Origin: Thermodesulfobacteriota bacterium
GTDB taxonomy: Bacteria; Desulfobacterota; Desulfobacteria; Desulfobacterales; Desulfosudaceae
Direction: 5' to 3'
Length of the DNA: 64,000 nucleotides
Assembly (NCBI GenBank): GCA_040753795.1
Contig: JBFMDX010000001.1
Location: 310,001-374,000 of the forward strand
The notes under the pieces were generated by a model. It saw nothing but the letters and a program-made list of their open reading frames with translations. It had not been told where the DNA came from and searched no databases. Positions 20,650-48,322 of the stretch are shown here, in pieces. How positions within the stretch are numbered: position 1 is the first letter of the stretch; each line of letters starts with the position of its first letter. Position numbers and translations under genes: made by a program.

Positions 20650-20671
20650 GGCTGAAAAATGTTTTTCAGCC
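20650..20671. promoter_or_regulatory. Perfect 10-bp inverted repeat upstream of Hsp70-TPR
   Basis: The arms GGCTGAAAAA and TTTTTCAGCC are perfect complements around a 2-nt centre, 59 nt before the ATG. It could be a second operator or a leader hairpin with a T-run in its 3' arm. It is not the CIRCE consensus. Confidence 0.45.
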
Positions 20672-20730
20672 GGGGACCAGCATCGGAAGGGTGGGCATTT
20701 TTATTCATCTGCAGCAAAAGGGGGATAAAA

Positions 20731-29925: not shown

Positions 29926-29926
29926 A

Positions 29927-30877: not shown

Positions 30878-30886
30878 GAGGTTGCC

Positions 30887-31921: not shown

Positions 31922-32499
31922 TGAAATACTATCAAGAAATATCATTGCTGCACCGGGCTGACATCGGTTTATACGACTTCTGGCAAAAGCTCTATCAGCA
32001 GATACATCTTGCCCTGGTGGAATGCAAGGGTGAGTCTGACAAGTCCACCATTGGCGTTTCTTTCCCTGAATATGACGCCACCCATTTTATGTTGGGTTGC
32101 AGGTTGCGTCTGTTTGCGCCGGAAAAATCCGCGCTGGAACAGTTACAGTGCGAAAAATGGTTGAGCCGTCTTAAAGATTATTTACATTGCGGTGAGATTG
32201 AGCCGGTGCCGGAAACGATTGCGGAGCACGCCTGCTTTTGTCAGGTTAAACCCAAAGGCAGCAAAGAGAAGCTGGCCAAACGTTGGGCCAAACGTCATGG
32301 AGAGGAATTTGAAAAGGCCCTAACTTACTATGATGCTTATGAGGAGGAGCGCAGCCGTTTGCCTTACATAAATATGGGTAGCCTGACAAACGGATGCCAC
32401 TTTCGGCTGTTTATTGAAAAGCGGGAAAAAGAGACGGCGCAGGCAGGTGTTTTCTCCTGCTATGGTTTAAGCCCTACCACAACAGTACCATTGTTTTAA
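31918..32499 (+). CDS. cas6f: Cas6f (Csy4) CRISPR RNA endoribonuclease
   Basis: This 193-residue protein aligns from memory end to end with Csy4. The N-terminal ferredoxin fold carries the general-base histidine at His30 (QKLYQQIHLALVE), followed by IGVSFPEYDATHFMLGCRLR. The end GCHFRLFIEKREKETAQAGV, then FSCYGLSP and the terminal Phe, is the RNA-binding part that also anchors the crRNA stem. The ATG at 31918 overlaps the cas5fv stop. An in-frame alternative ATG at 31921 exists. It cleaves the repeat hairpin (CCGCC-GTATA-GGCGG) of the adjacent array and stays on the crRNA 3' end. Confidence 0.95.
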   Translation: MMKYYQEISLLHRADIGLYDFWQKLYQQIHLALVECKGESDKSTIGVSFPEYDATHFMLGCRLRLFAPEKSALEQLQCEKWLSRLKDYLHCGEIEPVPETIAEHACFCQVKPKGSKEKLAKRWAKRHGEEFEKALTYYDAYEEERSRLPYINMGSLTNGCHFRLFIEKREKETAQAGVFSCYGLSPTTTVPLF

Positions 32500-32627: not shown

Positions 32628-35600
32628 GTTTCCCGCCGTATAGGCGGCTTAGAAACTGGTGTACGTCCCGGCGTTACCCATGGCAACCGTTTCCCGCCGT
32701 ATAGGCGGCTTAGAAAAAAACATTTCAGCGGACGCGCCGACAAGTTTTGTTTCCCGCCGTATAGGCGGCTTAGAAAGCTGATCTATGGCCTTGAAATATG
32801 GGCTGATTGTTTCCCGCCGTATAGGCGGCTTAGAAACCATCGGCCGTCACCGCATCCGACATCCAGGACGTTTCCCGCCGTATAGGCGGCTTAGAAAAAA
32901 CATTAAGCCAGACAAATCTTTTCTGTTATGTTTCCCGCCGTATAGGCGGCTTAGAAATTGTCCCTCCGGATACGCCTGACGATGAAATTGTTTCCCGCCG
33001 TATAGGCGGCTTAGAAAGATTCACAAACGAACTTTCCGGGCCTGGAATTGTTTCCCGCCGTATAGGCGGCTTAGAAAAGGAATATCAAAACTGGGGCGTC
33101 GACGGAGTCGTTTCCCGCCGTATAGGCGGCTTAGAAAACCTGAAGGATCCGGGCCAGTTCGTCAGTCTGGTTTCCCGCCGTATAGGCGGCTTAGAAAAGG
33201 AGGAAAAAAAGCTGGAACGGCTGGGGCTGGTTTCCCGCCGTATAGGCGGCTTAGAAAGTTCGGCCAGGCAGGCAGCGGCACAGGAAGAGGTTTCCCGCCG
33301 TATAGGCGGCTTAGAAAAAATTCCATTTTTAGCTACGGTAAAAAAGATAGTTTCCCGCCGTATAGGCGGCTTAGAAAAAGCAGCTTCCGGACGAGATCGA
33401 CGCCGACCTGTTTCCCGCCGTATAGGCGGCTTAGAAAATAGTCCGCATGGTGCTGTCCAGATCAGCCTTGTTTCCCGCCGTATAGGCGGCTTAGAAAAGT
33501 AATACGGAAACAAACTATAGCTACGCTGGGTTTCCCGCCGTATAGGCGGCTTAGAAAAGTGAAGATGCTACGGAGATCCAGGATATTTAGTTTCCCGCCG
33601 TATAGGCGGCTTAGAAAATTAAAGGAGAATGACGACATGAACAAATTTCGTTTCCCGCCGTATAGGCGGCTTAGAAAATAAATCCACTTCGCCGCTAACT
33701 TAACAGCATGTTTCCCGCCGTATAGGCGGCTTAGAAATTTGACCGTGCGGCCTCGATGCCAAACTTTTCGTTTCCCGCCGTATAGGCGGCTTAGAAACGA
33801 AAGGCACATCTGACCCGTTGTCGATCAGCGTTTCCCGCCGTATAGGCGGCTTAGAAAGAATACCTAGCGATATAGTTAAACCCGATCTCAGTTTCCCGCC
33901 GTATAGGCGGCTTAGAAATGAACGGCTGATGAATATCGCCAGATCGGCCCGTTTCCCGCCGTATAGGCGGCTTAGAAAAATATGCGGTTATCGCAAAACG
34001 CAAAGAGGAAGTTTCCCGCCGTATAGGCGGCTTAGAAAATATCCTGTGCCGCAATACCCTCCAGCGATCCCGTTTCCCGCCGTATAGGCGGCTTAGAAAA
34101 TCTGTGATAATGATGCGGCTCCGCTCCAGTAGTTTCCCGCCGTATAGGCGGCTTAGAAAACATCCGGGACGGCGTCCCGGTAAAAAATCCCGTTTCCCGC
34201 CGTATAGGCGGCTTAGAAAGCTACAAACGATCCGCTTTATTACGTCCTACAGTTTCCCGCCGTATAGGCGGCTTAGAAATAAAAAACCACGTCCTGCCGG
34301 AGCGGTTCATAGTTTCCCGCCGTATAGGCGGCTTAGAAATGAAACAATCCAGCGGGATGTTGAGATTGAGGGTTTCCCGCCGTATAGGCGGCTTAGAAAT
34401 GTATATCGTCAGCGCTGAAATATCCGATAACGTTTCCCGCCGTATAGGCGGCTTAGAAATTCATGGATTTAGGGTTGAGCATCCGCTGGATGTTTCCCGC
34501 CGTATAGGCGGCTTAGAAAAAGCGGACGTAAAAGCAAAAGCTCTCGACAAAGTTTCCCGCCGTATAGGCGGCTTAGAAATTTAATCACAGTCACCGGCGA
34601 CGGGTTACAGCGTTTCCCGCCGTATAGGCGGCTTAGAAATTATGGACCCCGTCGGTCACGCGCAGGGCCGCGTTTCCCGCCGTATAGGCGGCTTAGAAAT
34701 TAAACGCCAGATAGTACGGTGTCAATATACCGTTTCCCGCCGTATAGGCGGCTTAGAAATCAATCTGACAGATCGAAGGGATACGCAGATAGTTTCCCGC
34801 CGTATAGGCGGCTTAGAAATTTAAATGTACTGCATACACGCTTTTATCTGAGTTTCCCGCCGTATAGGCGGCTTAGAAAGCTGAAGAGTACAAGGCAAAC
34901 CGTCCGAAACCGTTTCCCGCCGTATAGGCGGCTTAGAAAGGTATCATCACGAATTCCGTAAGCATCTTTCCGTTTCCCGCCGTATAGGCGGCTTAGAAAA
35001 GTGCGTCCATGATGGTCTGCCAGTTTTCAGTGTTTCCCGCCGTATAGGCGGCTTAGAAAATTTATGAAGCCATCGGCGCCATGAGTTGATCGTTTCCCGC
35101 CGTATAGGCGGCTTAGAAAAAATAGAGATCCAGCAAGAGGCCCTCGACATAGTTTCCCGCCGTATAGGCGGCTTAGAAAATTATCTTTTTGCCAATCGGT
35201 CGTTTGTTTGTGTTTCCCGCCGTATAGGCGGCTTAGAAAAGAAAAATGTGGAATAGTTGGAGAACCAGAAAGTTTCCCGCCGTATAGGCGGCTTAGAAAA
35301 TGAGCGACAAGAAACCGTGCTGCAAAGAGAAGTTTCCCGCCGTATAGGCGGCTTAGAAAATCCGACTGAGCCGCGACGACCTGTACCGGCCGTTTCCCGC
35401 CGTATAGGCGGCTTAGAAAACCATGCCAGCCATGCCTCTGAATCAGCTTTTGTTTCCCGCCGTATAGGCGGCTTAGAAAAAATGCCCAGGCTCTCTTTCC
35501 AGCAGCATCAGTGTTTCCCGCCGTATAGGCGGCTTAGAAAGCCAACCGATCCCCCAAATGCCCAGGCTCTCTGTTTCCCGCCGTATAGGCGGCTTAGAAA

Positions 35601-38600
35601 ACATCATAGCCTGTTCAAGCAGTGCAAGGCTCGTTTCCCGCCGTATAGGCGGCTTAGAAATATGAGCCACACCGTTTTAACGGAGCCGGTTCGTTTCCCG
35701 CCGTATAGGCGGCTTAGAAATCATGCACCTTGGCAACTGTCCGGTGGTCGTTGTTTCCCGCCGTATAGGCGGCTTAGAAATGTAATACGCAATTCATACC
35801 ATGATTGCGGAGGTTTCCCGCCGTATAGGCGGCTTAGAAATGCGGGACTGGTCAAAGATGCAAGCAAAGGTCGTTTCCCGCCGTATAGGCGGCTTAGAAA
35901 CGGTTAAGCCGGAGCCGGACACCGTAACCGGCGTTTCCCGCCGTATAGGCGGCTTAGAAAGCGAGTCTTACGCATCACACCTGCTGTCATGGGTTTCCCG
36001 CCGTATAGGCGGCTTAGAAAATACTTTGTCAACAGTCGGCTTATCCATTATAGTTTCCCGCCGTATAGGCGGCTTAGAAAGCCTTCACGCTGTCCGATGA
36101 TCCGCATTGTTTGTTTCCCGCCGTATAGGCGGCTTAGAAATCTGCATACTGCGCTTTTTCTTTTTCGTGTGCGTTTCCCGCCGTATAGGCGGCTTAGAAA
36201 GCTCAACGCGATAGATGAAACTGCCGTCATAGGTTTCCCGCCGTATAGGCGGCTTAGAAAAGCAGATAGAGGACCGGTTTCGTAGGGCGGTCGTTTCCCG
36301 CCGTATAGGCGGCTTAGAAAAGGAAACCGGTCTCGTTGTCGATCGTGTCGTAGTTTCCCGCCGTATAGGCGGCTTAGAAATCCAGCGCCCGGCGCCGTTC
36401 CGGCGTCAGCACGTTTCCCGCCGTATAGGCGGCTTAGAAAGTGGTCAACGACGACTACGAGGCCACCGTCGAGTTTCCCGCCGTATAGGCGGCTTAGAAA
36501 ATCATGGTGTCCGCTGGACGCTGAAGCAAAGAGTTTCCCGCCGTATAGGCGGCTTAGAAAATGTGGCAGCCGAGGCGATAGTAGTCCCTTCGGTTTCCCG
36601 CCGTATAGGCGGCTTAGAAAGACCCCATGTTCCGGGAGATCGGCATCGCCGTGTTTCCCGCCGTATAGGCGGCTTAGAAAATGATAAGCACCTAAACTAG
36701 CACAACAATTTATGTTTCCCGCCGTATAGGCGGCTTAGAAATTGTTGGCAATGTGCAGGTGATCCCCGTTCGGGTTTCCCGCCGTATAGGCGGCTTAGAA
36801 ATGTCGGCTGCGACCACGGCCGCCGCCACTGCTGTTTCCCGCCGTATAGGCGGCTTAGAAATTGCGATACCGGGTCACGCCGGCGTCCCGCTCGTTTCCC
36901 GCCGTATAGGCGGCTTAGAAAGTCAACGTCTATGATCTCTACCAGAAACGGGCGTTTCCCGCCGTATAGGCGGCTTAGAAAAACAACGTCTGGAACAGCA
37001 ATTACAAACTGGTGTTTCCCGCCGTATAGGCGGCTTAGAAAACGATACAGTCAAAACACGGCCGGATTCCGTCGTTTCCCGCCGTATAGGCGGCTTAGAA
37101 AGTCAACCATGTATGCCTGGAAAAAAGGGGACAGTTTCCCGCCGTATAGGCGGCTTAGAAAGTTGGCGTTGGTCACCGGGTGGTCGGTGTCGTGTTTCCC
37201 GCCGTATAGGCGGCTTAGAAACACAATCACAAATCATGTCAACGTCTTTTAATAGTTTCCCGCCGTATAGGCGGCTTAGAAATATAACCAGAACCGCGAC
37301 ATGTGGGCCGAGGTGTTTCCCGCCGTATAGGCGGCTTAGAAAGCCAATTCGCCGGCGAGCTGGACAAGGCAGGCGTTTCCCGCCGTATAGGCGGCTTAGA
37401 AATTACAAGGGAACGGCCGAAGTGCAGGTCAACCGTTTCCCGCCGTATAGGCGGCTTAGAAACTGGACTTTCCGCAGCAATACATCCAGGCGTTGTTTCC
37501 CGCCGTATAGGCGGCTTAGAAAAATTATCAGTTTAAGGTTTCTTTCTTTGCCGCGTTTCCCGCCGTATAGGCGGCTTAGAAAGCATGGCGTGAATGGATG
37601 CCACTACCGTGGAAGTTTCCCGCCGTATAGGCGGCTTAGAAATTTATTGACTGCCGCCGTTGTGTTCCCGGTTAGTTTCCCGCCGTATAGGCGGCTTAGA
37701 AATGCACTGGCATGGATTCAGCTTCTATATCCAAGTTTCCCGCCGTATAGGCGGCTTAGAAAAAAAGGCGGAACGCTGATGGAATGGGGCGCCGGTTTCC
37801 CGCCGTATAGGCGGCTTAGAAAAATTATTTCATCCCCCTTGCGATATACTGTTTGTTTCCCGCCGTATAGGCGGCTTAGAAACATGTCTGATATTCCTGG
37901 ATCGTTGCCCAGTGGTTTCCCGCCGTATAGGCGGCTTAGAAATGTCCAACGGGTTCGCCGGCCTGGGCGGTAAGGTTTCCCGCCGTATAGGCGGCTTAGA
38001 AAAATTACTACACCGGGATGATCGGCATCAGGTAGTTTCCCGCCGTATAGGCGGCTTAGAAAGATCCGTCAGCCATTCTTTTGGTTGTTCCCGAGTTTCC
38101 CGCCGTATAGGCGGCTTAGAAAATGACAGCCATTCAGCGGCGGAGTCATCATCGGTTTCCCGCCGTATAGGCGGCTTAGAAAAGTTTTTCAAGCTGACCG
38201 TCATCGAAGGCGCCGTTTCCCGCCGTATAGGCGGCTTAGAAAAATATGGACAATGGCTTTCAATCTCAGAGTTCGTTTCCCGCCGTATAGGCGGCTTAGA
38301 AAATATCGTTCATCAACCGTCCACGGCATCGTTCGTTTCCCGCCGTATAGGCGGCTTAGAAATACGCCGTTACATCGCCAGCCTGAACCGATATGTTTCC
38401 CGCCGTATAGGCGGCTTAGAAATTGTATCCATCGTATGACTTTGATGGCCGCTGGTTTCCCGCCGTATAGGCGGCTTAGAAAGAATATCCCGCCTATATT
38501 GTCGATACCATTTTGTTTCCCGCCGTATAGGCGGCTTAGAAAATAATCACAGGCACTAAGCTCCTTGTGCTCTAGTTTCCCGCCGTATAGGCGGCTTAGA

Positions 38601-41003
38601 AATTTATTGTATTCAACACGGTCGCTGCTGCTCAGTTTCCCGCCGTATAGGCGGCTTAGAAATGTATTACGACTTGTCTGAACAGTTCCGGGTAGTTTCC
38701 CGCCGTATAGGCGGCTTAGAAACATACAAGCCCTGCACTAATAGCACCTGACGCAGTTTCCCGCCGTATAGGCGGCTTAGAAATACAAAGTTGCTCAATC
38801 CAAAACACTGCTTGAGTTTCCCGCCGTATAGGCGGCTTAGAAAAGCATTTTCATGGACGTGGCCAACAAGACTTTGTTTCCCGCCGTATAGGCGGCTTAG
38901 AAAAAAAAAGAAACTGGTTTTAACCCATTGACCATGTTTCCCGCCGTATAGGCGGCTTAGAAAAATATCACGGCCGGTGATTCGGACTGCGACATGTTTC
39001 CCGCCGTATAGGCGGCTTAGAAAATGAGTGATTTTGACCGGGTAAAATCGGCGTTGTTTCCCGCCGTATAGGCGGCTTAGAAATGATAGTGCTGCTGGTG
39101 CAAGCGTTCAGGCCGTTTCCCGCCGTATAGGCGGCTTAGAAAGGTTCACAGACAAATATGCACGGATAGGACTGGTTTCCCGCCGTATAGGCGGCTTAGA
39201 AAGGTTAAGGACCTAAACGGGTCTTGTAATGAGTGTTTCCCGCCGTATAGGCGGCTTAGAAAGTGATGATTCTTACTCCGGGACGTTTGAAAGCGTTTCC
39301 CGCCGTATAGGCGGCTTAGAAAGACAACGGAATACACCAAAGACGACGGAAGCGGTTTCCCGCCGTATAGGCGGCTTAGAAATCTAAATATAGGCGTTGA
39401 TTTCAAAGACTTCTGTTTCCCGCCGTATAGGCGGCTTAGAAAAGTATCCTTTAGCGGTGTCAGCGCTTATTATCGTTTCCCGCCGTATAGGCGGCTTAGA
39501 AACGTTGCCGCTTCCCTTGTCGCCAAGCATCTGCGTTTCCCGCCGTATAGGCGGCTTAGAAATTTAAAGGTGGAGCCGGGTGTGGAATCCGGCCGTTTCC
39601 CGCCGTATAGGCGGCTTAGAAATTATTTTCAGTTGAGTCACCTCTTATTGTGTAGTTTCCCGCCGTATAGGCGGCTTAGAAAGCATCTCATCAACAAGTG
39701 GACCTTGACTATTCGTTTCCCGCCGTATAGGCGGCTTAGAAAGCACTGGTGCTGTTTGGCTTTGCGGCCTATGTGTTTCCCGCCGTATAGGCGGCTTAGA
39801 AAATAACGGTAAGCGCCCACGGTACGGGGTAACAGTTTCCCGCCGTATAGGCGGCTTAGAAAGCCGCCTGTTCTTGTGCCGTTTCAAAGCTGGCGTTTCC
39901 CGCCGTATAGGCGGCTTAGAAATTCCACGCCATCACCGGCTGACGGATCAACGGGTTTCCCGCCGTATAGGCGGCTTAGAAAGCTGATAAAGTCCAAAGG
40001 TCATCAAGCCAAGCCGTTTCCCGCCGTATAGGCGGCTTAGAAAGAATATCTTTGCGGCTTCCATCATTGAGTCGGGTTTCCCGCCGTATAGGCGGCTTAG
40101 AAAACTTCTCATCCTCTGCGTACTGATTCTTGAGTGTTTCCCGCCGTATAGGCGGCTTAGAAATATACAATTCAATCCCTCGAATCAAATCTATTGTTTC
40201 CCGCCGTATAGGCGGCTTAGAAAGACGAAAGCCCACGTTGCGCTGATGTCACCGTGTTTCCCGCCGTATAGGCGGCTTAGAAAACTTCAGGCACAGCGTC
40301 AACCGGGATAGGTTTGTTTCCCGCCGTATAGGCGGCTTAGAAATTTTTCTCGACCGACGAGGCCGACATGGCATGGTTTCCCGCCGTATAGGCGGCTTAG
40401 AAATTGGTCGTTGTAGAGACAGAGCTTGACGGCATGTTTCCCGCCGTATAGGCGGCTTAGAAAAGCACACACCCTGGAGCGTTCAATCCCTGCACCGTTT
40501 CCCGCCGTATAGGCGGCTTAGAAAAGTTACTGCCGATAATTTTTTCAGAGTCCCGCGTTTCCCGCCGTATAGGCGGCTTAGAAATGTCCCCGACGATGAA
40601 TGGCCGGGAATGGCAGTTTCCCGCCGTATAGGCGGCTTAGGAAAAAAGGGGTAAGGGGTCAGAAGCCATTCTACTGTTTCCCGCCGTATAGGCGGCTTAG
40701 AAATGGAAGTCAATCATGTCATCTTCACTGTCGGAGTTTCCCGCCGTATAGGCGGCTTAGAAAACGTCAGACCGCCGTAAAAGCTCCAGATCGCCGTTTC
40801 CCGCCGTATAGGCGGCTTAGAAAATATCATACCACTGGCACAAGGTGGCACGGATGTTTCCCGCCGTATAGGCGGCTTAGAAAAGACTGATCGTACCGCC
40901 GGAACTGGAGGCGAAGTTTCCCGCCGTATAGGCGGCTTAGAAAAGGGAGTTGATCGACCTGTTTGTCCGTGACGCGTTTCCCGCCGTATAGGCGGCTTAG
41001 AAA
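32628..41003 (+). CRISPR. Type I-F CRISPR array, 140 repeats and 139 spacers
   Basis: The 28-bp repeat is GTTTCCCGCCGTATAG followed by GCGGCTTAGAAA, with internal stem CCGCC/GGCGG and loop GTATA. This matches the I-F repeat pattern. I counted one repeat start per 60-nt interval from 32628 to 40976, giving 140 repeats. Spacers are 31-33 nt, mostly 32. All repeats that I read are identical except repeat 134 (40616), which has a single A to G near its 3' end. The last repeat at 40976-41003 is intact, so the distal end shows no decay. The length suggests an active or long-stable locus. Spacers 48 and 49 overlap in sequence. The reading frames seen across the array are artefacts of the repeat. Confidence 0.99.
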
Positions 41004-41490: not shown

Positions 41491-42081
41491 ATGAGTTTGG
41501 AGCCGGTATCCATTAAAGACGCGGAGCTGGTGGCCGATATTCTGGGCCGGGCCTTTATGGATGACCCGGTCATGAACTATATTCAGCCGGATCGGTCGTT
41601 TATCCCCCGGTATTTCAAGGCCGCGTTTATTAAACACTATGCGTCGCATGGGCTGAGCCGGGTGATGCCGGACCACACCGGCGCGGCCTTGTGGCTGCCG
41701 CCGGGTGTCGGCACCCGGTTTCCGCCGCTTTTTTTCGCTCTGGCCTGGACCCGGCGTCATCTGGGGAAAAAGAACGGGCTGCGCATGATTATGCGGGCCA
41801 ACCGGCTGCTGCACCATGTTGAACGGGCGCGGCCGGTCAGGACGCATTTCTACCTGCACGGCCTGGGCGTGGTCAAAGAGAAGCAGGGCCGGGGCATCGG
41901 TTCGTTCCTGTTGCGGGAGCGGCTGACCGTGTGCGACCGTGAGCGGGCGCCGGCGTACCTGGAGTGCTCCAATGAAAAGAACCTGCCGCTTTATGAACGG
42001 CACGGGTTCCGGGTTGTCGAGGAGTTCCGGCTGGCGCGGGACGCGCCCATGATCTGGTTTATGGCCCGGGAGCCGGGATAA
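41491..42081 (+). CDS. GNAT family N-acetyltransferase
   Basis: From the ATG at 41491 the protein is 196 residues. A GTG at 41461 with GGGAGAAAG upstream would add 10 residues, and either is possible. The GNAT fold is clear: LEPVSIKDAELVADILGRAF at the start, the acetyl-CoA motif LGVVKEKQGRGIGSFLLRER (Q-G-R-G-I-G) and YLECSNEKNLPLYERHGFRV near the end. The substrate is unknown. The last 23 nt overlap the end of the convergent gene 42059-43045, so antisense interference is possible. Confidence 0.88.
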   Translation: MSLEPVSIKDAELVADILGRAFMDDPVMNYIQPDRSFIPRYFKAAFIKHYASHGLSRVMPDHTGAALWLPPGVGTRFPPLFFALAWTRRHLGKKNGLRMIMRANRLLHHVERARPVRTHFYLHGLGVVKEKQGRGIGSFLLRERLTVCDRERAPAYLECSNEKNLPLYERHGFRVVEEFRLARDAPMIWFMAREPG

Positions 42082-43045
42082 GGTAGTGCAAATCCTTTTC
42101 ATCGAGCATTTTTTTCTGATCCAGAAAGCGGAGGAACTCCGCAAGCTGCCGGCGCTTTCCGATCATCATGTTGGTTTGAGAATCGTAAAAGGCGCCGGAT
42201 TGGTGCGCGTAGATGGGGGGCGTTACCGCGAAAATGGGATGCTTTAACCCCATGAAGGCGGCTTTGGCGCAATTATATTCATCCCACCCGTAATCACGTT
42301 TCAACATGGCATGATATCCGCCAAGGCCGAAATGCATCTGACAAACCGGGGTTAATCCGGGCTTATCCGAATCCTGAATCTGCTTCCGCGTTACCGGAGA
42401 CAGCAGAATGGCGGTCAGGATATCCGCGGATTTGTCCACAAAAGCAGCGTAGTCACAGCGATCATCAATATCCGCGTAGATCGCGCGGTTCCTTTTTGTC
42501 ACCTGGATATAATCCTCTTTGGCGTTGGCCAACCCTTCAACGGCCAGATAAAAAAGATCGGTGATCATATCGTTGCCGGACCATAACCCTTCCTGCCGGG
42601 CCGCGGCCAGCATCTGTTGCAGGTCGTCCATAATCGTGGCGGACCATCCCACAAACATCATAAAGCAGTCCCAGGCTTTGACGAAACAATCCGTGCCGAC
42701 ATTGTGATACCGGCGTGAATAACCGATTGACGGTGTGGGAACCACCGAAGGGTTATGGAGTTCGGTCCCTGGCGCGCCGTATAATGAACAGCAGAACTGA
42801 GGGAAAATGGTTATTCGATCAAGGATACGGAGAATCTGGTAATTGTTGTCCGCGTCGTATCCTTTGACAAATCCGACCGGCAGGACATTGTTTTCGTTGA
42901 TCACGACGTGGTGAGAGTAGCTTTGCCATGATTTGGCTTCGGCCGCCTGTTTTTCGTAAAAACCGGACAATATTTTCCGGATTTTTTCGTCTTGCCGACT
43001 TGATGAAGGTGGTTTGCCGCTTTCTTCGATCAGGTGTTTTTCCAT
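42059..43045 (-). CDS. Unrecognised 328-residue protein
   Basis: I do not recognise the family. The start is well supported by AGGAGG 10 nt upstream. It is soluble, with no signal peptide or membrane segment. Visible segments include LSGFYEKQAAEAKSWQSYSH, HHVVINENNVLPVGFVKGYD, FPQFCCSLYGAPGTELHNPS and VCQMHFGLGGYHAMLKRDYG. There are several aromatic and His residues in the middle (RRYHNVGTDCFVKAWDCFMM) but no known catalytic motif. The upstream region (43046-43282) carries the third copy of the TGTGAC-N7-GTCACA palindrome at 43114-43132. It may therefore share a regulator with the cas operon and Hsp70-TPR. Confidence 0.75.
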   Translation of the reverse strand: MEKHLIEESGKPPSSSRQDEKIRKILSGFYEKQAAEAKSWQSYSHHVVINENNVLPVGFVKGYDADNNYQILRILDRITIFPQFCCSLYGAPGTELHNPSVVPTPSIGYSRRYHNVGTDCFVKAWDCFMMFVGWSATIMDDLQQMLAAARQEGLWSGNDMITDLFYLAVEGLANAKEDYIQVTKRNRAIYADIDDRCDYAAFVDKSADILTAILLSPVTRKQIQDSDKPGLTPVCQMHFGLGGYHAMLKRDYGWDEYNCAKAAFMGLKHPIFAVTPPIYAHQSGAFYDSQTNMMIGKRRQLAEFLRFLDQKKMLDEKDLHYLIPAPGP

Positions 43046-43246: not shown

Positions 43247-43274
43247 TTGACAGCGGATGAAAGTTCGATATCAT
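43247..43274 (+). promoter_or_regulatory. Promoter of the XRE regulator gene, probably leaderless
   Basis: TTGACA (43247-43252) and TATCAT (43269-43274) are 16 bp apart. The expected start of transcription, about 43281, lies at or just before the ATG at 43283, so the mRNA would have almost no leader. The palindrome 43263-43279 covers the -10 box. Confidence 0.55.
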
Positions 43275-43279
43275 CGAAC
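43263..43279. promoter_or_regulatory. 17-bp operator, copy 1 (GTTCGA-N5-TCGAAC)
   Basis: GTTCGATATCATCGAAC has near-perfect dyad symmetry. Related copies are at 44422-44438 and 44525-44541. Occupancy of this copy would block the -10 box of the XRE gene, giving negative autoregulation. Confidence 0.65.
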
Positions 43280-43282
43280 ATC

Positions 43283-43663
43283 ATGACGCCATCAGACAAC
43301 ACTACATTCGCACACCGGTTGAAGTCGCTCCTGGAAGCGGCGGACAGGACCCAGGCCGATCTGGTTAAAAGCGGGATCATCTCCAAGAGCTACCTGTCCG
43401 GAATCTTGAGCGGCAAGCATCCGGCGCCCGACGTGTCGATCATCAAGGGCATTTGCCGGGAGCTGCGGGTGGACAAAACCGTGGAAAACGAATTGATCCT
43501 TCTGGCCGGAAAAGAGTTTGAGCATATTCTGGCCAATGAGGCGGCGGCCGATTTTCTGCGGCGGACCGTGGAAAACGGCTGGGGCGATGAGGAGTGGGAG
43601 CGGCATAATCAGGTGATCGACATTATCATTCCCGCCAGGAAAAAGTCTCCGGATGGTGACTGA
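43283..43663 (+). CDS. XRE/Cro-family helix-turn-helix regulator
   Basis: From the ATG at 43283 the protein is 126 residues. A longer frame from TTG at 43247 is unlikely because that TTG is part of the -35 box. The HTH is FAHRLKSLLEAADRTQADLV, then SGIISKSYLSGILSGKHPAP, and IIKGICRELRVDKTV ends the domain (residues about 8-70). The C-terminal part is acidic and helical. It lies 27 nt before the ImmA/IrrE-type metallopeptidase gene. Repressor-plus-metallopeptidase pairs of this type control phage, ICE and stress modules, with the peptidase cleaving the repressor. It probably binds the GTTCGA palindromes here. Confidence 0.9.
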   Translation: MTPSDNTTFAHRLKSLLEAADRTQADLVKSGIISKSYLSGILSGKHPAPDVSIIKGICRELRVDKTVENELILLAGKEFEHILANEAAADFLRRTVENGWGDEEWERHNQVIDIIIPARKKSPDGD

Positions 43664-43690
43664 TCCGGGAGCGGGGCGACGGGGGAAAGC

Positions 43691-44398
43691 ATGAACTGGC
43701 AGGTTCCTTATTTATCCAGAGCGGACATGGCCCGGCGAGCCGAAGCGCTGCTGGCGGCATACGGGGAGAAAGACGGCAAGCCGGTGGAGCCGCCCGTGCC
43801 GGTGGAAGCGATGATCGGCTTCCTGGGGCTCAAATGCGTGTACGTGAATTTTGAGCGGATCAACCAGCCCGGCGTCCTGGGCGCCACCTATGTCAACCGG
43901 CGGCTGATCGCCGTCAGCCGGGACCTGCTGGACGAAAGCGTTTGCGGGCGGTCGGCCTTTACCATGGCCCACGAGGTCGGGCACTGGGTGCTTCACCGGC
44001 GCCTGGCGGAAAAGGGCGGCGGAGCCGGAAGCGGCGAGGAGATTATTTTCTGCCGCCGGGAGGACACCGCAAAACCCGTGGAAAGCCAGGCCAATTATTT
44101 CGCCGGCTGCCTGCTCATGCCGGAAGCCCATGTGCGGGAAGCCTTTAGCCGGGTGTTCAAGCCGGAGCGGCTCGATCTGGTCAATGTCCACAGCGATTTT
44201 GCCACCTCCATGTTCGGTTTTGATTTCTGCGTGGAGAACTGGCCCCGCATCGCCGCGACGGTTTGTGAGGCCGGCGGCTTTGACAATGTCTCGCTTCAGG
44301 CCATGATCATCCGGCTGCAGAACCTGGGGCTGGTGGTCAATCATACCCGCCAGGCCATGGGCTGGGCGAGAAAACCGGGGATGACGGCTACGGCTTAA
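43691..44398 (+). CDS. ImmA/IrrE-family metallopeptidase (DUF955)
   Basis: This 235-residue protein has the zinc-protease motif HEVGHWVLH (HExxH) at about residue 99 in AFTMAHEVGHWVLHRRL. ESQANYFAGCLLMPE, the family's third-ligand region, follows around residue 140. The N-terminal part (SRADMARRAEALLAAYGEKD) and the C-terminal winged-helix-like end are as in ImmA/IrrE proteins. It is expected to cleave the XRE repressor encoded just upstream when a signal arrives, releasing the operator copies at 43263, 44422 and 44525. The signal is unknown. Confidence 0.92.
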   Translation: MNWQVPYLSRADMARRAEALLAAYGEKDGKPVEPPVPVEAMIGFLGLKCVYVNFERINQPGVLGATYVNRRLIAVSRDLLDESVCGRSAFTMAHEVGHWVLHRRLAEKGGGAGSGEEIIFCRREDTAKPVESQANYFAGCLLMPEAHVREAFSRVFKPERLDLVNVHSDFATSMFGFDFCVENWPRIAATVCEAGGFDNVSLQAMIIRLQNLGLVVNHTRQAMGWARKPGMTATA

Positions 44399-44421
44399 AA
44401 AATATTTTTTTTGCCGGTAAG

Positions 44422-44438
44422 GTTCGACGCTATCGAAC
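44422..44438. promoter_or_regulatory. 17-bp operator, copy 2
   Basis: GTTCGACGCTATCGAAC is the second copy of the family, 138 nt upstream of the AAA ATPase start, in the 161-nt gap between the peptidase and AAA genes. Confidence 0.6.
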
Positions 44439-44524
44439 AAATCCGGCGGGTGAACGCGACTCCGCCTGTCCAGACCCTTTGTTTCCGAAGCAGTACCAGA
44501 AAAACGGGTAATGGCGCGGTGAGA

Positions 44525-44541
44525 GTTCGATAACATCGAAC
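44525..44541. promoter_or_regulatory. 17-bp operator, copy 3
   Basis: GTTCGATAACATCGAAC lies 19 nt before the AAA ATPase start and probably overlaps its promoter or leader. Two operator copies in one gap suggest cooperative repression or a promoter facing the AAA gene. Confidence 0.6.
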
Positions 44542-44559
44542 AAAACAACGGGAGAAGGA

Positions 44560-46185
44560 ATGGAACAGATTGAAGATGCCCTGCGGGCCGGGATCCCTAT
44601 CCTTTATGTCACGTCTCCGGAAGAGGAACGGGTGGTTACCGCCCTCGAGCAGTCCAGCCGCAGGTTGAAACGGAAACTGTGGCTGTACACGGTCAGCGAA
44701 GGCCTGTGGACCGTAGACTTCCCGCCTTCGGAAAACGGGCCGCCGGAACCGGTTTACGGCAAGCCCAATCCGGAGTTCCGCGACCCTGTTGCCCTGCTGC
44801 GGAACATCAAGACCACCCATGTGCCTAAAAGAGGGGCGATCTACCTGCTGCTGGATTTTCATGAATTCCTGTCCGATCCGGTGACCCGGCGGCTGCTGCG
44901 GGACCTGGGCGCGGTGTTAAAGGCCGCCAACAGTGCCGTCATTATCCTGGCGCCGGTGGCTTCCCTGCCGCAGGTCCTGGAAAACGATGTCTGGTGCCGC
45001 GCGTTTCCGCTGCCGACCCGGACGGAACTGGCTGCCAGCCTGGGCCGGTACGCGGAGCGGAACGCGGACGACGGGCTGGCCGGGATCGCCGCCGACCAGG
45101 TGCGGGCGGCCGTGGCCGAAGCCGGACGAGGGCTGACGCTCAAGCAGTTTGAGCAAAGCGTCGCCCGGGCCATGGTCCGCCGCCAGGGCATGATAACGGC
45201 GGCCGTGGCCGACGATATCGCCCGGGCCCGGAAAGACATTCTGCGGCGGACCGCGGCCCTGACCTGGATTGACGCCGAGCCCGGGCTCAACTGGGGCGGG
45301 TTGTCGGCGCTGAAACAGTGGCTGGCGGAGCGGAAGCGCGGCTTTAGCGACGAGGCCCGCCGGGCGGGTTTGCCGGCGCCCCGGGGCATCCTGCTGCTGG
45401 GCGTGCCCGGGTGCGGCAAGAGCCTGGCGGCCAGGATGACCGCCGCATTCTGGAACCTTCCCCTGGCGCGGCTGGAGACCGGCGGCCTGTTCACCAGCCG
45501 GGTGGGCGGCTCCGAGGAACGGACCCGGCAGGCGATCAGCGCCGTTGAAGCCATCGCGCCATGCGTGTTGTGGATCGACGAGATCGAAAAAGCCATGGCC
45601 GGTATCAGCGGATCGGCGGATTCGGACGCCGGCACGGCCTCCCGGGTGTTTGCCGCCCTGGCCACCTGGATGCAGGAGAAAACCGCGCCGGTGTTCGTAG
45701 TGGCCACGGCCAACTCGGTGGCGGCCCTGCCGCCGGAACTGCTGCGCAAGGGCCGCTGGGACGAAATTTTCTTCGTGGACCTGCCGGGCCTGGGCGAGCG
45801 CCGGGAGATCGCCGAAATCCATTTGAGAAAAGCCGGCCATGACGCGGTCCAGGCGGATGCCCGCCTGATCGCCGAGCACGGGGAGGGGCTTTCCGGCGCG
45901 GAGATCGAGCAGGCCATTGTGGCCGGCCGGTACCGGGCATTCGCGGCCGGACGCTCCATGACGGGCGGGGACGTGCTGGCGGCCATGGCCGGCCAGGTGC
46001 CCCTGTCCGTGACCATGGCCGAGGAGATAAGCGCCCTTCGCGAATGGGCCGCCGTCCGGGCCAGGCCGGCCTCCGTGGATGATGTGCAGGAACAGCGGGA
46101 CGACTGGCGCCGGAGAAAGGCGGGCGGGTTGGTGACGTTGCCGGTGGCCGGCCGGTCAACGCAGGATAATTTGGTTATGGATTAA
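44560..46185 (+). CDS. Ycf46-like AAA+ ATPase
   Basis: This 541-residue protein is preceded by GGGAGAAGG. The N-terminal half (MEQIEDALRAGIPILYVTSP, then LYLLLDFHEFLSDPVTRRLL) has the non-catalytic domain seen in Ycf46-type proteins. The AAA core follows: LLLGVPGCGKSLAARM (Walker A at about 281-289), CVLWIDEIEKAM (Walker B at about 335), VVATANSVAALPPELLRKGR (sensor 1 and Arg finger region) and WDEIFFVDLPGLGERREIAE. Catalytic residues are intact. It is the first gene of a set ending in DUF1257 (Ycf35-like) and DUF2997. That gene trio also occurs in cyanobacteria and plastid-related genomes. Its function is unknown. Here it is under XRE/ImmA-type operators. Confidence 0.9.
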   Translation: MEQIEDALRAGIPILYVTSPEEERVVTALEQSSRRLKRKLWLYTVSEGLWTVDFPPSENGPPEPVYGKPNPEFRDPVALLRNIKTTHVPKRGAIYLLLDFHEFLSDPVTRRLLRDLGAVLKAANSAVIILAPVASLPQVLENDVWCRAFPLPTRTELAASLGRYAERNADDGLAGIAADQVRAAVAEAGRGLTLKQFEQSVARAMVRRQGMITAAVADDIARARKDILRRTAALTWIDAEPGLNWGGLSALKQWLAERKRGFSDEARRAGLPAPRGILLLGVPGCGKSLAARMTAAFWNLPLARLETGGLFTSRVGGSEERTRQAISAVEAIAPCVLWIDEIEKAMAGISGSADSDAGTASRVFAALATWMQEKTAPVFVVATANSVAALPPELLRKGRWDEIFFVDLPGLGERREIAEIHLRKAGHDAVQADARLIAEHGEGLSGAEIEQAIVAGRYRAFAAGRSMTGGDVLAAMAGQVPLSVTMAEEISALREWAAVRARPASVDDVQEQRDDWRRRKAGGLVTLPVAGRSTQDNLVMD

Positions 46186-46206
46186 ATTTTGCCAAAGGAG
46201 GACCTA

Positions 46207-46437
46207 ATGGAAAATGAACAGGAATACGGCGGACTGCCGGTGGCGTTGATCCCGAGGGACCGGTTCTGCCGCCGGCAGGTCCTGCAGGAGGTGGTCGTTC
46301 ATCCGGACGGCGGCATCGAGGTTCCCTGGGTCACCCCGGCGGCAGCGCCGCTGCTGCGGGAGATCTGGGCCGCGGTCAACGGTGCAGAGTCCTTTCCCGT
46401 GGAAGCGGGGGCGGACGGATGGATTTATTGCGGGTGA
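46207..46437 (+). CDS. Small hypothetical protein of the AAA-DUF1257 module
   Basis: The ATG at 46207 after AAAGGAGGACCT gives 76 residues: MENEQEYGGLPVALIPRDRF, then CRRQVLQEVVVHPDGGIEVP, ending with a Trp-containing WIYCG. I do not recognise the family. It lies 21 nt after the AAA gene and 98 nt before DUF1257, so it is likely a member of the operon. Confidence 0.75.
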   Translation: MENEQEYGGLPVALIPRDRFCRRQVLQEVVVHPDGGIEVPWVTPAAAPLLREIWAAVNGAESFPVEAGADGWIYCG

Positions 46438-46450
46438 AAATGAAATAGGG

Positions 46451-46484
46451 ATAAGGTTTAAGGTTCAAGGTTTAAGGTTTAGGG
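46451..46484. repeat. GGTTTAAGG tandem-like repeats
   Basis: ATAAGGTTTAAGGTTCAAGG and a following TTTAAGGTTTAG are short direct repeats between the small hypothetical gene and DUF1257. A copy of GGTTTAAGGTTCAAGG is found again at 55453-55468. Confidence 0.8.
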
Positions 46485-46535
46485 CACAGGGTGCAAGGTT
46501 CGGGGTGAAAGGCATTTTTAGAAGGAGGTACAAAG

Positions 46536-46907
46536 ATGTCCATGACGATTTATACCACTATCAGCGGGGTGACCGACCTGGGGCTCATGCTGGAGGCCTT
46601 GCAGGCCATGGGTTTGCAGGCCTGGAAAAAAGAGGGGTCAGAGCGGGGCGCCGAAGGGGAACTGGCGGAAGCCTGGATCGAGAACAGACGGATCGGTATT
46701 GTCCGGAACGGGAAAACCGGGCAGTTGGCGCTGAAGGGGGACAGCGACTGGCGGGTGCTGAGGGACACCGCCTTTCAGAACCGGCTGCGCCAGCAATACG
46801 GGGTGGCGGCTGTCAGAGAGAAAGCCAAGGCCATGAATTATCAGATCTCTTCGATCACGACCCGTCAGGACGGTTCCATTCAGATCCTGGCTACGGCCTG
46901 GGGATAA
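46536..46907 (+). CDS. DUF1257 (Ycf35-like) protein
   Basis: This 123-residue protein is preceded by AGAAGGAGG. It starts MSMTIYTTISGVTDLGLMLE and ends MNYQISSITTRQDGSIQILA followed by TAWG. The family signatures I use are the GVTDLGLMLEALQAMGLQAW opening and the repeat-like beta core with KAKAMNYQISSITTRQDGSI. Ycf35/DUF1257 proteins are short, conserved in cyanobacteria and plastids, and of unknown function. They often neighbour DUF2997 and Ycf46, as here. The association makes it more likely that all three belong to one functional unit. Confidence 0.82.
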   Translation: MSMTIYTTISGVTDLGLMLEALQAMGLQAWKKEGSERGAEGELAEAWIENRRIGIVRNGKTGQLALKGDSDWRVLRDTAFQNRLRQQYGVAAVREKAKAMNYQISSITTRQDGSIQILATAWG

Positions 46908-46910
46908 GCC

Positions 46911-47120
46911 ATGAAGAAAACAACCATTGAATTTGTTGTCGGCCGCGACGGCCGTATCCGTTCGCGGGTCCTGGGAGTGAAAGGGCCTGACTGCCGGACT
47001 GTTTCCGACGCGTTGAAGCAGGGCCTGGGCAAAGTGGTGTCCGCGGAAAAGACGGCGGAATATTTCGAGACGGCCCGGACCGGGATCCAGGTTCATCTCG
47101 GCGGCCCGGATCAGACATGA
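46911..47120 (+). CDS. DUF2997 family small protein
   Basis: This 69-residue protein starts MKKTTIEFVVGRDGRIRSRV and continues LGVKGPDCRTVSDALKQGLG, which is the DUF2997 pattern (KTIEFxIxxDGRVxxxVxGxxGxxC). It begins 3 nt after the DUF1257 stop, so the two are almost certainly co-translated. No function is established for the family. Confidence 0.85.
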   Translation: MKKTTIEFVVGRDGRIRSRVLGVKGPDCRTVSDALKQGLGKVVSAEKTAEYFETARTGIQVHLGGPDQT

Positions 47121-47618: not shown

Positions 47619-47648
47619 TAAAGCATTGCAAACATGAAAGGGACCGTT

Positions 47649-47867
47649 ATGCAGACCGTAAAATTGAGCTCAAAGAATCAGATCGTGCTGCCCAGGGAAG
47701 CCAGGGACGCCATGAAACTCAAAGCGCATGACGAGCTTCTGGTCGTTGTCAAGGGCAGTGTGACTATCGTTATGCCTAAGCCCGTGGAATACCGGCCCGA
47801 ACTGGCCGGGGCGGGCAAAGGCCTTTACCCGAAGTCCTACCTGAAGAAGGAGCGGAAAGATTGGTAA
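47649..47867 (+). CDS. AbrB/MazE-type (VapB-like) antitoxin
   Basis: The ATG at 47649 after GGGA gives 72 residues. The alternative ATG at 47634 would add five. The swapped-hairpin AbrB fold reads VKLSSKNQIVLPREARDAMK followed by LKAHDELLVVVKGSVTIVMP. The C-terminal tail (GKGLYPKSYLKKERKDW) would wrap the toxin. It overlaps the start of the PIN toxin gene, a classical toxin-antitoxin arrangement. Promoter and inverted repeat lie at 47590-47624. Confidence 0.88.
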   Translation: MQTVKLSSKNQIVLPREARDAMKLKAHDELLVVVKGSVTIVMPKPVEYRPELAGAGKGLYPKSYLKKERKDW

Positions 47868-48322
47868 GCCGAAGCCCCGGCAGATTTCTGCAAACTCACC
47901 GCCGGATTTATCTCGATACCAGTATTTTCATCTATTTCGTCGAGCGCCATCCTCTTTATTTTGATGTCTGCGATGAGATTTTCCAGAAAGTTGAAGAAGG
48001 TCGTATTGAAGCGATGACATCCACCTTGACACTGATGGAGGTCCTCGTCCAGCCTTACCGGGTAAAAAAGGAAGAGATCGTTCTGAAATTCTATGCTCTT
48101 ATGACGACATATCCCAATCTGAAATGGATAGAATTAACGCTTGGCATTTCAGACCTTGCCGCCAAGCTGCGGGCTGAGCATAGCTTGAAGACGCCGGATG
48201 CCATCCAGATCGCATCTGCCCTTTCCGTCGGCGCGACCGGAATTGTGACCAACGATAAGGTCTTTCGGAAAACAAATCAGATTCCATGCCTGGTTCTGGA
48301 TGAGATGGTCGTAAAAGCTTAA
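47861..48322 (+). CDS. PIN-domain toxin (VapC-like ribonuclease)
   Basis: This 153-residue protein starts at a TTG that overlaps the antitoxin stop by a few bases, with AAGGAG about 8 nt upstream. PIN metal-binding acids are present: Asp19 in YLDTSIFIYFVERHP, Glu in LTLMEVLVQPY, Asp in LKTPDAIQIASAL and Asp in GIVTNDKVF. All four positions are intact, so the toxin should be active. VapC toxins usually cut tRNA or rRNA. The specific target is unknown. Confidence 0.9.
   Translation: MVSRSPGRFLQTHRRIYLDTSIFIYFVERHPLYFDVCDEIFQKVEEGRIEAMTSTLTLMEVLVQPYRVKKEEIVLKFYALMTTYPNLKWIELTLGISDLAAKLRAEHSLKTPDAIQIASALSVGATGIVTNDKVFRKTNQIPCLVLDEMVVKA

What the first reader, a model, noticed from the sequence alone, without database searches (positions are those of the whole stretch)
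43283..47120. XRE-ImmA-controlled AAA/DUF1257/DUF2997 module: candidate undescribed stress or defence system
An XRE repressor, an ImmA/IrrE metallopeptidase, a Ycf46-like AAA+ ATPase, a small protein, DUF1257 (Ycf35-like) and DUF2997 follow each other in one direction with shared operators. The AAA, DUF1257 and DUF2997 grouping also occurs in cyanobacteria but has no known function. Control by a cleavable repressor is typical of phage, ICE and toxin modules. Placement between CRISPR and VapBC adds to the case. I infer an inducible complex in which the AAA protein acts on, or with, the DUF1257/DUF2997 pair.
Basis: partly seen in the sequence, partly recalled or inferred. Interest (0 to 1): 0.8.

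Follow-up and report, generated by a model that had tools for sequence, protein, structure and literature searches.

The report
DNA-damage-type switch on p97-like ATPase operon
A bacterial operon of unknown purpose, built around a motor protein that resembles eukaryotic p97, sits under a repressor-and-protease switch of the kind that turns on anti-phage systems when DNA is damaged; the same switch, with the same DNA operators, is found in related bacteria in front of this motor or of an extra copy of the replicative helicase.

Summary
The six genes are real, in one direction, and share operators: GTTCGA-N4-ATCGAAC occurs exactly three times in the 4.75-Mb genome, once before XRE and twice before AAA. 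ImmA matches CapP, the protease of the CapH-CapP switch. The operator pair is kept at the same two places in other species. Regulators of this family stand before AAA-DUF1257-DUF2997 modules, extra DnaB helicases, CBASS and a ubiquitin-like operon. The AAA protein models as a p97-like tandem ATPase with a degenerate first domain. DUF1257 and DUF2997 model as one joined sheet, weak evidence of a complex. The small protein belongs to a set that ends in Cys-Gly. In the samples examined the module mostly lacks this switch and lies with Hsp70/HEAT genes or in phages. So: an inducible, CapH/CapP-type stress operon with an undescribed effector. Defence is possible but not shown; genome maintenance fits about as well.

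The parts
43247..43274 (+). Sigma-70-type promoter of the regulator pair: TTGACA 43247-43252, 16-bp spacer, TATCAT 43269-43274; the -10 lies inside operator O1
   Evidence: TTGACA precedes the upstream operator in 9 of 9 loci that have one.
43263..43279 (.). Operator O1, GTTCGATATCATCGAAC, ends 3 bp before the XRE start codon (probable autorepression site)
43283..43663 (+). XRE/CapH-like repressor, 126 aa
   Evidence: Pfam HTH_31 2.1e-6, HTH_3 1e-5; PADLOC capH 1.1e-4, weak; homologous repressors at the same place in other operator loci.
43691..44398 (+). ImmA/IrrE metallopeptidase of CapP type, 235 aa; HEVGH (H94, E95, H98) and E131 kept
   Evidence: Pfam M78 2.4e-11; PADLOC capP 8.7e-21; invariant columns in alignment A1; PDB sequence match CapP 7t5t 8.8e-12 for A1.
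44422..44438 (.). Operator O2, before the AAA gene
   Evidence: counterpart just after ImmA in nine other loci.
44525..44541 (.). Operator O3, before the AAA gene (a second copy, not seen in the other operator loci)
44560..46185 (+). AAA+ ATPase, 541 aa: degenerate first ATPase-like domain (about 1-230, no Walker A) and a second domain with Walker A 281-288, Walker B 336-341 and RKGRWD 396-401
   Evidence: Pfam AAA 5e-25; motifs; AF2 pLDDT 86.5, pTM 0.80; Foldseek best matches p97/Cdc48 tandem domains.
46207..46437 (+). Small protein, 76 aa, ends ...WIYCG; member of a recurrent set with C-terminal Cys-Gly
   Evidence: No Pfam, NCBIfam or PADLOC family at E 1; sense ORFs ending CG near AAA 36 of 1171 against 4 of 1321 antisense.
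46536..46907 (+). DUF1257 (Ycf35-like) protein, 123 aa
   Evidence: Pfam 2e-7; 3.6e-23 with a profile of 41 sequences in which the window is one.
46911..47120 (+). DUF2997 protein, 69 aa
   Evidence: Pfam 2.5e-15.

Best explanation
This is a damage-inducible operon. The XRE protein (CapH-like) sits as a repressor on O1, shutting its own promoter, and on O2/O3, shutting the AAA operon (operator positions shown; binding inferred). When single-stranded DNA builds up, from DNA damage or phage replication, the ImmA protein (CapP-like) is activated and cleaves the repressor (inferred from CapP and PprI biochemistry). The cell then makes a p97/Cdc48-like unfoldase whose first ATPase-like domain lacks a Walker A, together with DUF1257 and DUF2997, which pair with each other as its cofactor or adaptor (weakly supported by modelling), and a Cys-Gly-tailed small protein that is a third cofactor or a tag (inferred). 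The machine pulls apart or remodels protein complexes during the emergency. Whether the target is a phage complex or the cell's own stalled replication and aggregated proteins is open.
For: ImmA matches capP and its family profile matches only CapP in the PDB at E 0.01. Exact operators unique to the locus in the genome. The operator pair recurs before XRE and after ImmA in nine other loci: eight with both sites, and L113 with one, its contig starting inside the XRE gene; TTGACA stands upstream of 9 of 9 upstream sites. In the same ImmA clade six loci without operators (L112, L116, L117, L118, L094, L095) also show no XRE gene (L117's contig is too short to tell). Related regulators stand before CBASS genes in L129 and L131, a multiubiquitin/E2 operon in L132 and an extra DnaB in L108, L110, L113. 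AAA model and p97 likeness; one Walker A, in the second half. DUF1257-DUF2997 read-through chain gives pTM 0.80. An Hsp70-like gene lies within 6.5 kb of the module in 17 of 34 cellular loci, and GrpE, Hsp70, DUF1257, DUF2997 and AAA lie together in a cyanobacterial plasmid, which points to protein remodelling. Published: CapP cleaves CapH on ssDNA binding (PMC13373217 and PMC10904395, passages seen).
Against: No binding, cleavage or induction was measured. The capH match is weak (1.1e-4). The p97 likeness may reflect only the AAA fold shared by many families; in the 50 rows shown TMq is 0.40-0.58 with rmsd 8-15 A. The DUF1257-DUF2997 chain was tethered artificially, only 3 of 24 rows cover DUF2997, and no inter-domain error was returned. 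The module usually lives without this switch. A Cys-Gly protein is missing from 64 of 99 loci by the rule. Some switch loci are decayed: L121 (XRE not found, gap in AAA, DUF1257 not found), L122 (no AAA), L124 (ImmA split in two frames).
Confidence: 0.6

Rival explanations
1. Anti-phage defence proper: the operon is an inducible immune effector, as CBASS is under CapH/CapP, and the AAA machine inactivates a phage complex or kills the infected cell.
For: Related regulators stand before CBASS in L129 and L131 and a ubiquitin-like operon in L132. The window lies near a type I-Fv CRISPR locus and a MazE/PIN pair. L114, the sister row in the AAA tree (99/99), lies beside type III restriction and methyltransferase genes and an AAA gene like HEC-01A. 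PADLOC's best AAA match is IetA.
Against: The CBASS and ubiquitin-like regulators lie on the other side of a 100/100 split from the window's. The window's side holds AAA modules, DnaB copies or nothing recognised. The IetA match covers only the AAA domain. Neighbours of L109, L119 and L121 look like housekeeping genes by eye, and the six of them tested had no PADLOC match at E 1e-10. Phages themselves carry the module.
Confidence: 0.3
2. Genome-maintenance response: the switch is a local SOS-like regulon, and the AAA machine, like the extra DnaB under the same operators, restarts or clears stalled replication complexes.
For: In the group of five ImmA rows that holds the window (85/77, not a starred branch) the other four are three DnaB loci and L114; all five loci have the operators. 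The genomes of L108, L110 and L113 each have two strong DnaB_C matches, against one in the genomes of L111, L119 and L115. Phage RHph_I4 carries the module upstream of DnaB and polymerase genes; phage SM1 has the AAA gene upstream of DnaB, the two DUFs not being annotated there. PprI/DdrO of Deinococcus is a DNA-damage response (PMC10904395, passages).
Against: No DnaB-like gene in the fetched stretch of 49 of 49 viral and 35 of 35 cellular loci that hold DUF1257, so the DnaB link is through the regulator and not through the module. The Hsp70 context points to proteins rather than DNA.
Confidence: 0.3
3. Domesticated phage remnant: XRE-ImmA is a lysogeny switch and AAA-DUF1257-DUF2997 are early phage genes, kept or decaying after loss of the rest.
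For: Module genes are common in viral contigs (39 of the 80 best loci with both DUFs), and some chromosomal loci look like prophages: DUF3150 neighbour in 8 of 34 cellular loci, a Rad52-like neighbour in L062 by eye (not confirmed). In the AAA tree the window lies in a poorly resolved fork of 23 rows, 9 of them viral.
Against: No phage family among the four neighbours of the operon that were scanned. The window's AAA pairs with L114 and its next nearest rows are non-phage. The XRE-ImmA-operator-module order is kept in L109, L114 and L119 with no phage gene recognised nearby.
Confidence: 0.1
4. Chance neighbours: a housekeeping Ycf46-type operon that happens to lie after an unrelated XRE-ImmA pair.
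For: The module usually occurs without the pair.
Against: Operators before both transcription units, kept in position in other species; nine ImmA loci of this family, the window counted, have an AAA gene of this family after them.
Confidence: 0.03

Closest known systems
CapH-CapP switch of CBASS and Bub operons
   Same: HTH repressor followed by an HEXXH peptidase, directly before an operon; ImmA matches the capP model and the CapP structure by sequence; relatives of this ImmA stand before CBASS and a ubiquitin-like operon.
   Different: Cargo is not CBASS or Bub; the window's regulator lies on the other side of a strong split from the CBASS/Bub ones; capH match weak; biochemistry not tested.
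PprI (IrrE)-DdrO of Deinococcus
   Same: Protease plus repressor logic (PMC10904395, passages); HEXXH peptidase.
   Different: Here one local operon with its own operators, not a scattered regulon: only three exact operator copies in the genome.
p97/Cdc48 unfoldase
   Same: Tandem AAA architecture in the model; best Foldseek matches are p97/Cdc48 and kin such as AFG2 and NVL.
   Different: First domain has no Walker A, no separate N domain in the model; 541 aa.
Ycf46/Ycf35 (DUF1257)/DUF2997 genes of cyanobacteria and plastids
   Same: DUF1257 and DUF2997 are the same Pfam families; cluster g of Synechocystis is duf2997-ycf35-fed7 (PMC4284462, passage).
   Different: Ferredoxin or Hsp70 partners there instead of the regulator pair. 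That the AAA protein is a Ycf46 is recalled, not tested.
IetAS anti-phage system
   Same: IetA is an AAA ATPase; PADLOC match 4.9e-18.
   Different: Match confined to residues 263-496; NCBIfam score 68 against a cut-off of 510; no IetS-like protease among the ten genes scanned.

Membership tests
CapH-CapP type regulator | HEXXH metallopeptidase related to CapP | tested here: met
   PADLOC capP 8.7e-21; only PDB match CapP 7t5t; H94, E95, H98, E131 invariant in A1.
CapH-CapP type regulator | Adjacent HTH repressor of CapH type | tested here: inconclusive
   HTH gene adjacent, Pfam HTH_31; capH model only 1.1e-4.
CapH-CapP type regulator | Palindromic operators before the regulator and the downstream operon | tested here: met
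   Three exact sites in the window; pair conserved elsewhere. That repressor binds them was not tested.
CapH-CapP type regulator | Activation by ssDNA and cleavage of the repressor | not testable with these tools
   Needs biochemistry.
CBASS | CD-NTase gene in the operon | tested here: not met
   No cyclase among the six genes.
IetAS | Full-length IetA match and adjacent subtilase IetS | tested here: not met
   Partial match below cut-off; no subtilase family among the ten genes scanned.
AAA module with DUF1257/DUF2997 | AAA gene beside both DUF families | tested here: met
p97/Cdc48 | Two active AAA domains and a substrate-binding N domain | tested here: not met
   One Walker A only; the model starts directly with the degenerate ATPase-like domain.
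Bacterial ubiquitin-like (Bub/Bil) system | Ubiquitin-like protein with E1/E2 enzymes | tested here: not met
   No E1 or E2 family in the six genes; the Cys-Gly small protein matches no family.

The most novel reading that the evidence does not exclude
A bacterial, damage-inducible counterpart of the p97 system: a CapH/CapP-type switch releases a p97-like unfoldase with a DUF1257-DUF2997 adaptor and a Cys-Gly-tailed small protein that is attached to, or marks, the substrates. Phages carry their own version, in one group with the Cys-Gly tail at the end of DUF2997 itself, which would make the module a shared tool of host and phage.
Probability: 0.12. Interest if true: 0.9.

Novelty: new variant of a known kind. 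Interest (0 to 1): 0.62.

Why it matters
DUF1257 (Ycf35) and DUF2997 occur from cyanobacteria and plastids to phages, yet the passages read give no tested function. For Ycf46 I saw only search listings, and I recall a report that links the Synechocystis gene slr0374 to stress and carbon uptake, so its function is not claimed to be blank. Placing these genes under a switch with a likely trigger gives a direct handle: ssDNA or DNA damage should turn this version on, so phenotypes and targets can be looked for at the right moment. It also extends the CapH/CapP kind of control to a non-CBASS effector and to extra DnaB helicases.

Tried and rejected
Whole-genome census of operators: only three exact sites, so no wider regulon of the DdrO kind was seen. 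A DUF1257-DUF2997 gene fusion seemed possible in L041 but the two lie in different frames; dropped. A link of the module to DnaB in phages, suggested by RHph_I4 and SM1, did not hold: 0 of 49 viral loci with DUF1257 have a DnaB-like gene in the fetched stretch, and 9 of 31 without DUF1257 do. Separate recruitment of AAA modules by the switch: the trees show two groups, but one clade is not rejected (AU p 0.37). An alignment with added DUF2997 rows was misaligned and not used (A4). PDB searches by sequence with DUF1257 gave nothing, and with DUF2997 two designed TIM barrels, taken as chance. Foldseek gave no PDB match at E 0.001 for the DUF1257-DUF2997 model; the second look gave only middling Z (up to 7.4), among them TBP- and KA1-like domains, so the fold is left open. 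Literature: DUF3150 in 0 papers; a five-of-six-term search for ImmA, IrrE, anti-phage, AAA ATPase, repressor and defence islands gave 0.

My gene calls in loci come from a crude script of my own that missed the window's ImmA; profile and homology hits were therefore taken from six-frame ORFs. Assignments of neighbours that were not run against Pfam or PADLOC are by eye. Part's output was cut; L121-L124 were read again. An earlier count said that AAA was found in 36 of 40 loci; the recount is 35. The shuffles keep base composition only, not dinucleotides. Loci counted include near copies, so the counts are not independent events.
Full report
Observation. The six ORFs lie head to tail on the + strand. 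Pfam recognises an HTH repressor, an M78 (ImmA/IrrE) peptidase, an AAA ATPase, DUF1257 and DUF2997, and nothing for the small protein. Three exact copies of GTTCGANNNNATCGAAC lie at 43263, 44422 and 44525; no other exact copy was found in the window or in the 4.75-Mb genome. The first ends 3 bp before the XRE start codon and covers the -10 box of a promoter with a perfect TTGACA. The other two lie between ImmA and AAA. The name Ycf46-like is recalled and was not tested.

The switch. PADLOC's capP model matches ImmA at 8.7e-21, and capH matches the repressor only at 1.1e-4. A profile of nine ImmA relatives (A1) finds one sequence in the PDB at E 0.01, CapP 7t5t, at 8.8e-12. In passages of two papers that I saw, CapP is a protease that is activated by ssDNA and cleaves the repressor CapH, the pair is named among regulators of CBASS and other immune operons, and PprI-DdrO of Deinococcus works in a similar way (PMC13373217; PMC10904395). 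Binding, cleavage and ssDNA activation are inferred for the window.

Relatives of the switch. A search with the window's ImmA found it in 13 of 395 genomes of the phylum sample at E 1e-10, the own genome counted; in five of them an AAA gene of this family follows (G000, G368, G355, G222, G093). The one scan of named genomes, with A1, gave 28 loci. Read by gene order, what follows the peptidase is: AAA gene 8 (L109, L114, L115, L119, L120, L121, L124, L128; L121's AAA has an internal gap that removes Walker A; L115, L124 and L128 run off their contigs, and L128's AAA piece was recognised by its match to L124's, 1e-55); DnaB 3 (L108, L110, L113); CBASS 2 (L129, L131; verified); ubiquitin-like 2 (L132 verified as Multi_ubiq, Prok-E2_E and DUF6527; L126 by eye only); an unknown operon 2 (L125, L127); nothing recognised 7 (L111, L112, L116, L117, L118, L122, L123); cut 1 (L130); weak matches 3 (L133-L135). 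AAA, DUF1257 and DUF2997 are all seen in L109, L114, L119, L120 and the window.

The operator pair. I scanned 30 loci with this ImmA for GTTC-N9-GAAC near the gene. Ten have it: the window (3 sites), L108, L109, L110, L111, L114, L115, L119 and L093 with one site 367-426 bases before the aligned ImmA start and one (two in the window) after the ImmA stop, and L113 with the second site only (its contig starts inside the XRE gene). The expectation from shuffles was at most 0.06 per locus. The other 20 have none nearby; among them L112, L116, L118, L094 and L095 also show no XRE gene, L117's contig is too short to tell, and L120, L121, L122, L124 and L128 form a separate subgroup. TTGACA starts 16 bases before eight of the nine upstream sites and 19 before L114's. 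The same operators therefore serve AAA modules (window, L109, L114, L115, L119), DnaB (L108, L110, L113) and loci without a recognised cargo (L111, L093). The genomes of L108, L110 and L113 each have two strong DnaB_C matches; those of L111, L119 and L115 have one.

Tree of the switch. In a tree of 28 ImmA rows one side (21 rows) holds AAA 9, DnaB 3 and none 9; the other (7 rows) holds CBASS 2, ubiquitin-like 2, unknown 2 and none 1; the split is 100/100. The window's nearest rows by path are the three DnaB loci, L111 and L114; its own end branch is long (0.85). So the direct kin of the window's switch are not the ones that stand before known defence operons. This speaks against a simple transfer of the word defence from CBASS to this operon.

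The effector. The AAA protein keeps Walker A, Walker B and RKGRWD in the second half only (columns in A2). Its model (pLDDT 86.5, pTM 0.80) begins with a degenerate ATPase-like domain with its own helical part, and the best PDB matches span the D1-D2 tandem of p97/Cdc48 and kin (TMq up to 0.58 in the rows shown). DUF1257 and DUF2997 are in the same frame, so a read-through chain could be modelled: pTM 0.80, pLDDT 80.5, with the last 22 residues under 50. Weak structural matches (Z up to 7.4) run across the junction, from about residue 84 to 177 or 189, as if the last helix and strands of DUF1257 and the strands of DUF2997 made one sheet. This is suggestive only; the chain was tethered, and 3 of 24 rows cover DUF2997.

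The small protein. It has no family, but it ends in Cys-Gly. Near AAA genes of 99 module loci, 36 of 1171 small ORFs on the same strand end in CG, against 4 of 1321 on the other strand and 11 of 3047 further away; 35 of 99 loci have at least one on the sense strand, 4 on the antisense. A few of the 36 look like chance. Many share, by eye, a short strand-DG-strand pattern. They lie before AAA in part of the Hsp70 group and in most switch loci, after AAA in the window and L114, or after DUF2997 (L053, L066 and others); in L049, L056, L062, L063, L064 and L065 the tail is the end of DUF2997 itself. L122, which has lost or never had AAA, keeps the small gene. 64 of 99 loci have none by this rule. 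What the tail does is not known.

Where else the module occurs. DUF2997 was found in 35 of 297 genomes of the phylum sample, 33 over the cut-off. Of 40 loci fetched, 35 hold the AAA gene and 35 hold DUF1257. Within 6.5 kb an Hsp70-like gene lies beside the module in 17 of 34 cellular loci and 0 of 49 viral ones; a DUF3150 gene in 8 of 34 and 25 of 49 (one representative of each family checked). HEAT-repeat-like gene families occur in 8 and 6 of the 34 cellular loci (the first checked). A Pseudanabaena plasmid has GrpE, Hsp70, DUF1257, DUF2997 and AAA together, so the Hsp70 link is not confined to this phylum. In phages the AAA gene is found in 116 of 50,697 records, for example with DUF1257 and DUF2997 in RHph_I4. 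Plasmid matches were 710 records, of which 53 cover at least 80% of the protein. In the AAA trees the window pairs with L114 (97 and 99/99) and the other switch-controlled AAAs form a second group; one clade is not rejected.

Interpretation. Shown: the genes, the operators, their conservation, the family of the protease, the company the switch keeps, and the module's other settings. Inferred: the trigger, the cleavage, the unfoldase activity and the complex. The Hsp70/GrpE company and the p97 likeness make protein remodelling the best guess for what the effector does; the DnaB kin make genome maintenance a serious reading of why, and the CBASS and ubiquitin-like kin, the I-Fv CRISPR locus, the MazE/PIN pair and L114's type III restriction genes keep defence in play. 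Against defence: the split in the ImmA tree, the neighbours of L109, L119 and L121, which look like housekeeping genes, and the fact that phages carry the module.

Novelty. In the searched library DUF1257 occurs in 3 papers and DUF2997 in 2; the passages seen name no tested function. In the passages of PMC13373217 that I saw, the operons named for such regulators do not include this module. I rate it a new variant of a known kind: a CapH/CapP-type controlled operon with an undescribed effector.

Noticed in passing
window 26138-32499 and 32628-41003: Type I-Fv CRISPR-Cas: Cas1f, a Cas3 with a Cas3f-like start, Cas7fv, a 344-aa gene without a family match, Cas6f, followed by an array of 140 repeats (GTTTCCCGCCGTATAGGCGGCTTAGAAA, up to 4 mismatches).
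   Followed up: partly
L108:7678-9270, L110:8820-10184, L113:967-2340: An extra DnaB replicative helicase lies after the XRE-ImmA pair and its operator in three genomes that each have two strong DnaB_C matches.
   Followed up: partly
L039, L042, L048, L055, L059 and others; L221: HEAT-repeat, Hsp70-like, AAA, DUF1257, DUF2997 gene groups, with GrpE in a cyanobacterial plasmid: looks like an undescribed Hsp70-AAA chaperone operon.
   Followed up: partly
L049, L056, L062, L063, L064, L065: DUF2997 itself ends in Leu-Cys-Gly in this phage-like group, whereas elsewhere the Cys-Gly tail is on a separate small protein.
   Followed up: partly
L122:8898-9040 region and L121, L124: Decay series in one subgroup: L122 keeps XRE, ImmA and the Cys-Gly small gene but has no AAA; L121 has a gapped AAA and no XRE found; L124's ImmA is split in two frames.
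   Followed up: partly
window 44398-44421 and the same place in other operator loci: A run of T stands just before the second operator in 9 of 10 operator loci by eye (not L111); terminator of the regulator transcript or promoter element, not tested.
   Followed up: no
L125:5117-9657, L127: Unknown multi-gene operon after an XRE-ImmA pair of this family in Rhodospirillales; two of its proteins had no PADLOC match and a third no clear Pfam match.
   Followed up: no
viral loci L141-L220 and L057:9137-10039: DUF3150 gene beside the AAA-DUF1257 module in 25 of 49 viral and 8 of 34 cellular loci; DUF3150 is in no paper of the searched library.
   Followed up: no
window 42059-43045 (-): 328-aa ORF between the CRISPR array and the operon with no Pfam match at E 1 and no NCBIfam match at E 0.001.
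   Followed up: no
window 47634-48322: MazE-type antitoxin and PIN-domain toxin pair after the operon.
   Followed up: no
window 20659-23148: 829-aa DnaK-like protein with a TPR-like tail, about 20 kb before the operon.
   Followed up: no
window 46440-46530: Imperfect short repeats (aaggtttaaggttcaagg...) between the small gene and DUF1257, seen by eye.
   Followed up: no
L138 (Treponema succinifaciens plasmid): A relative of the AAA gene lies inside a gene cluster with VgrG/Pvc8-type and baseplate genes, beside a 4Fe-4S protein.
   Followed up: no
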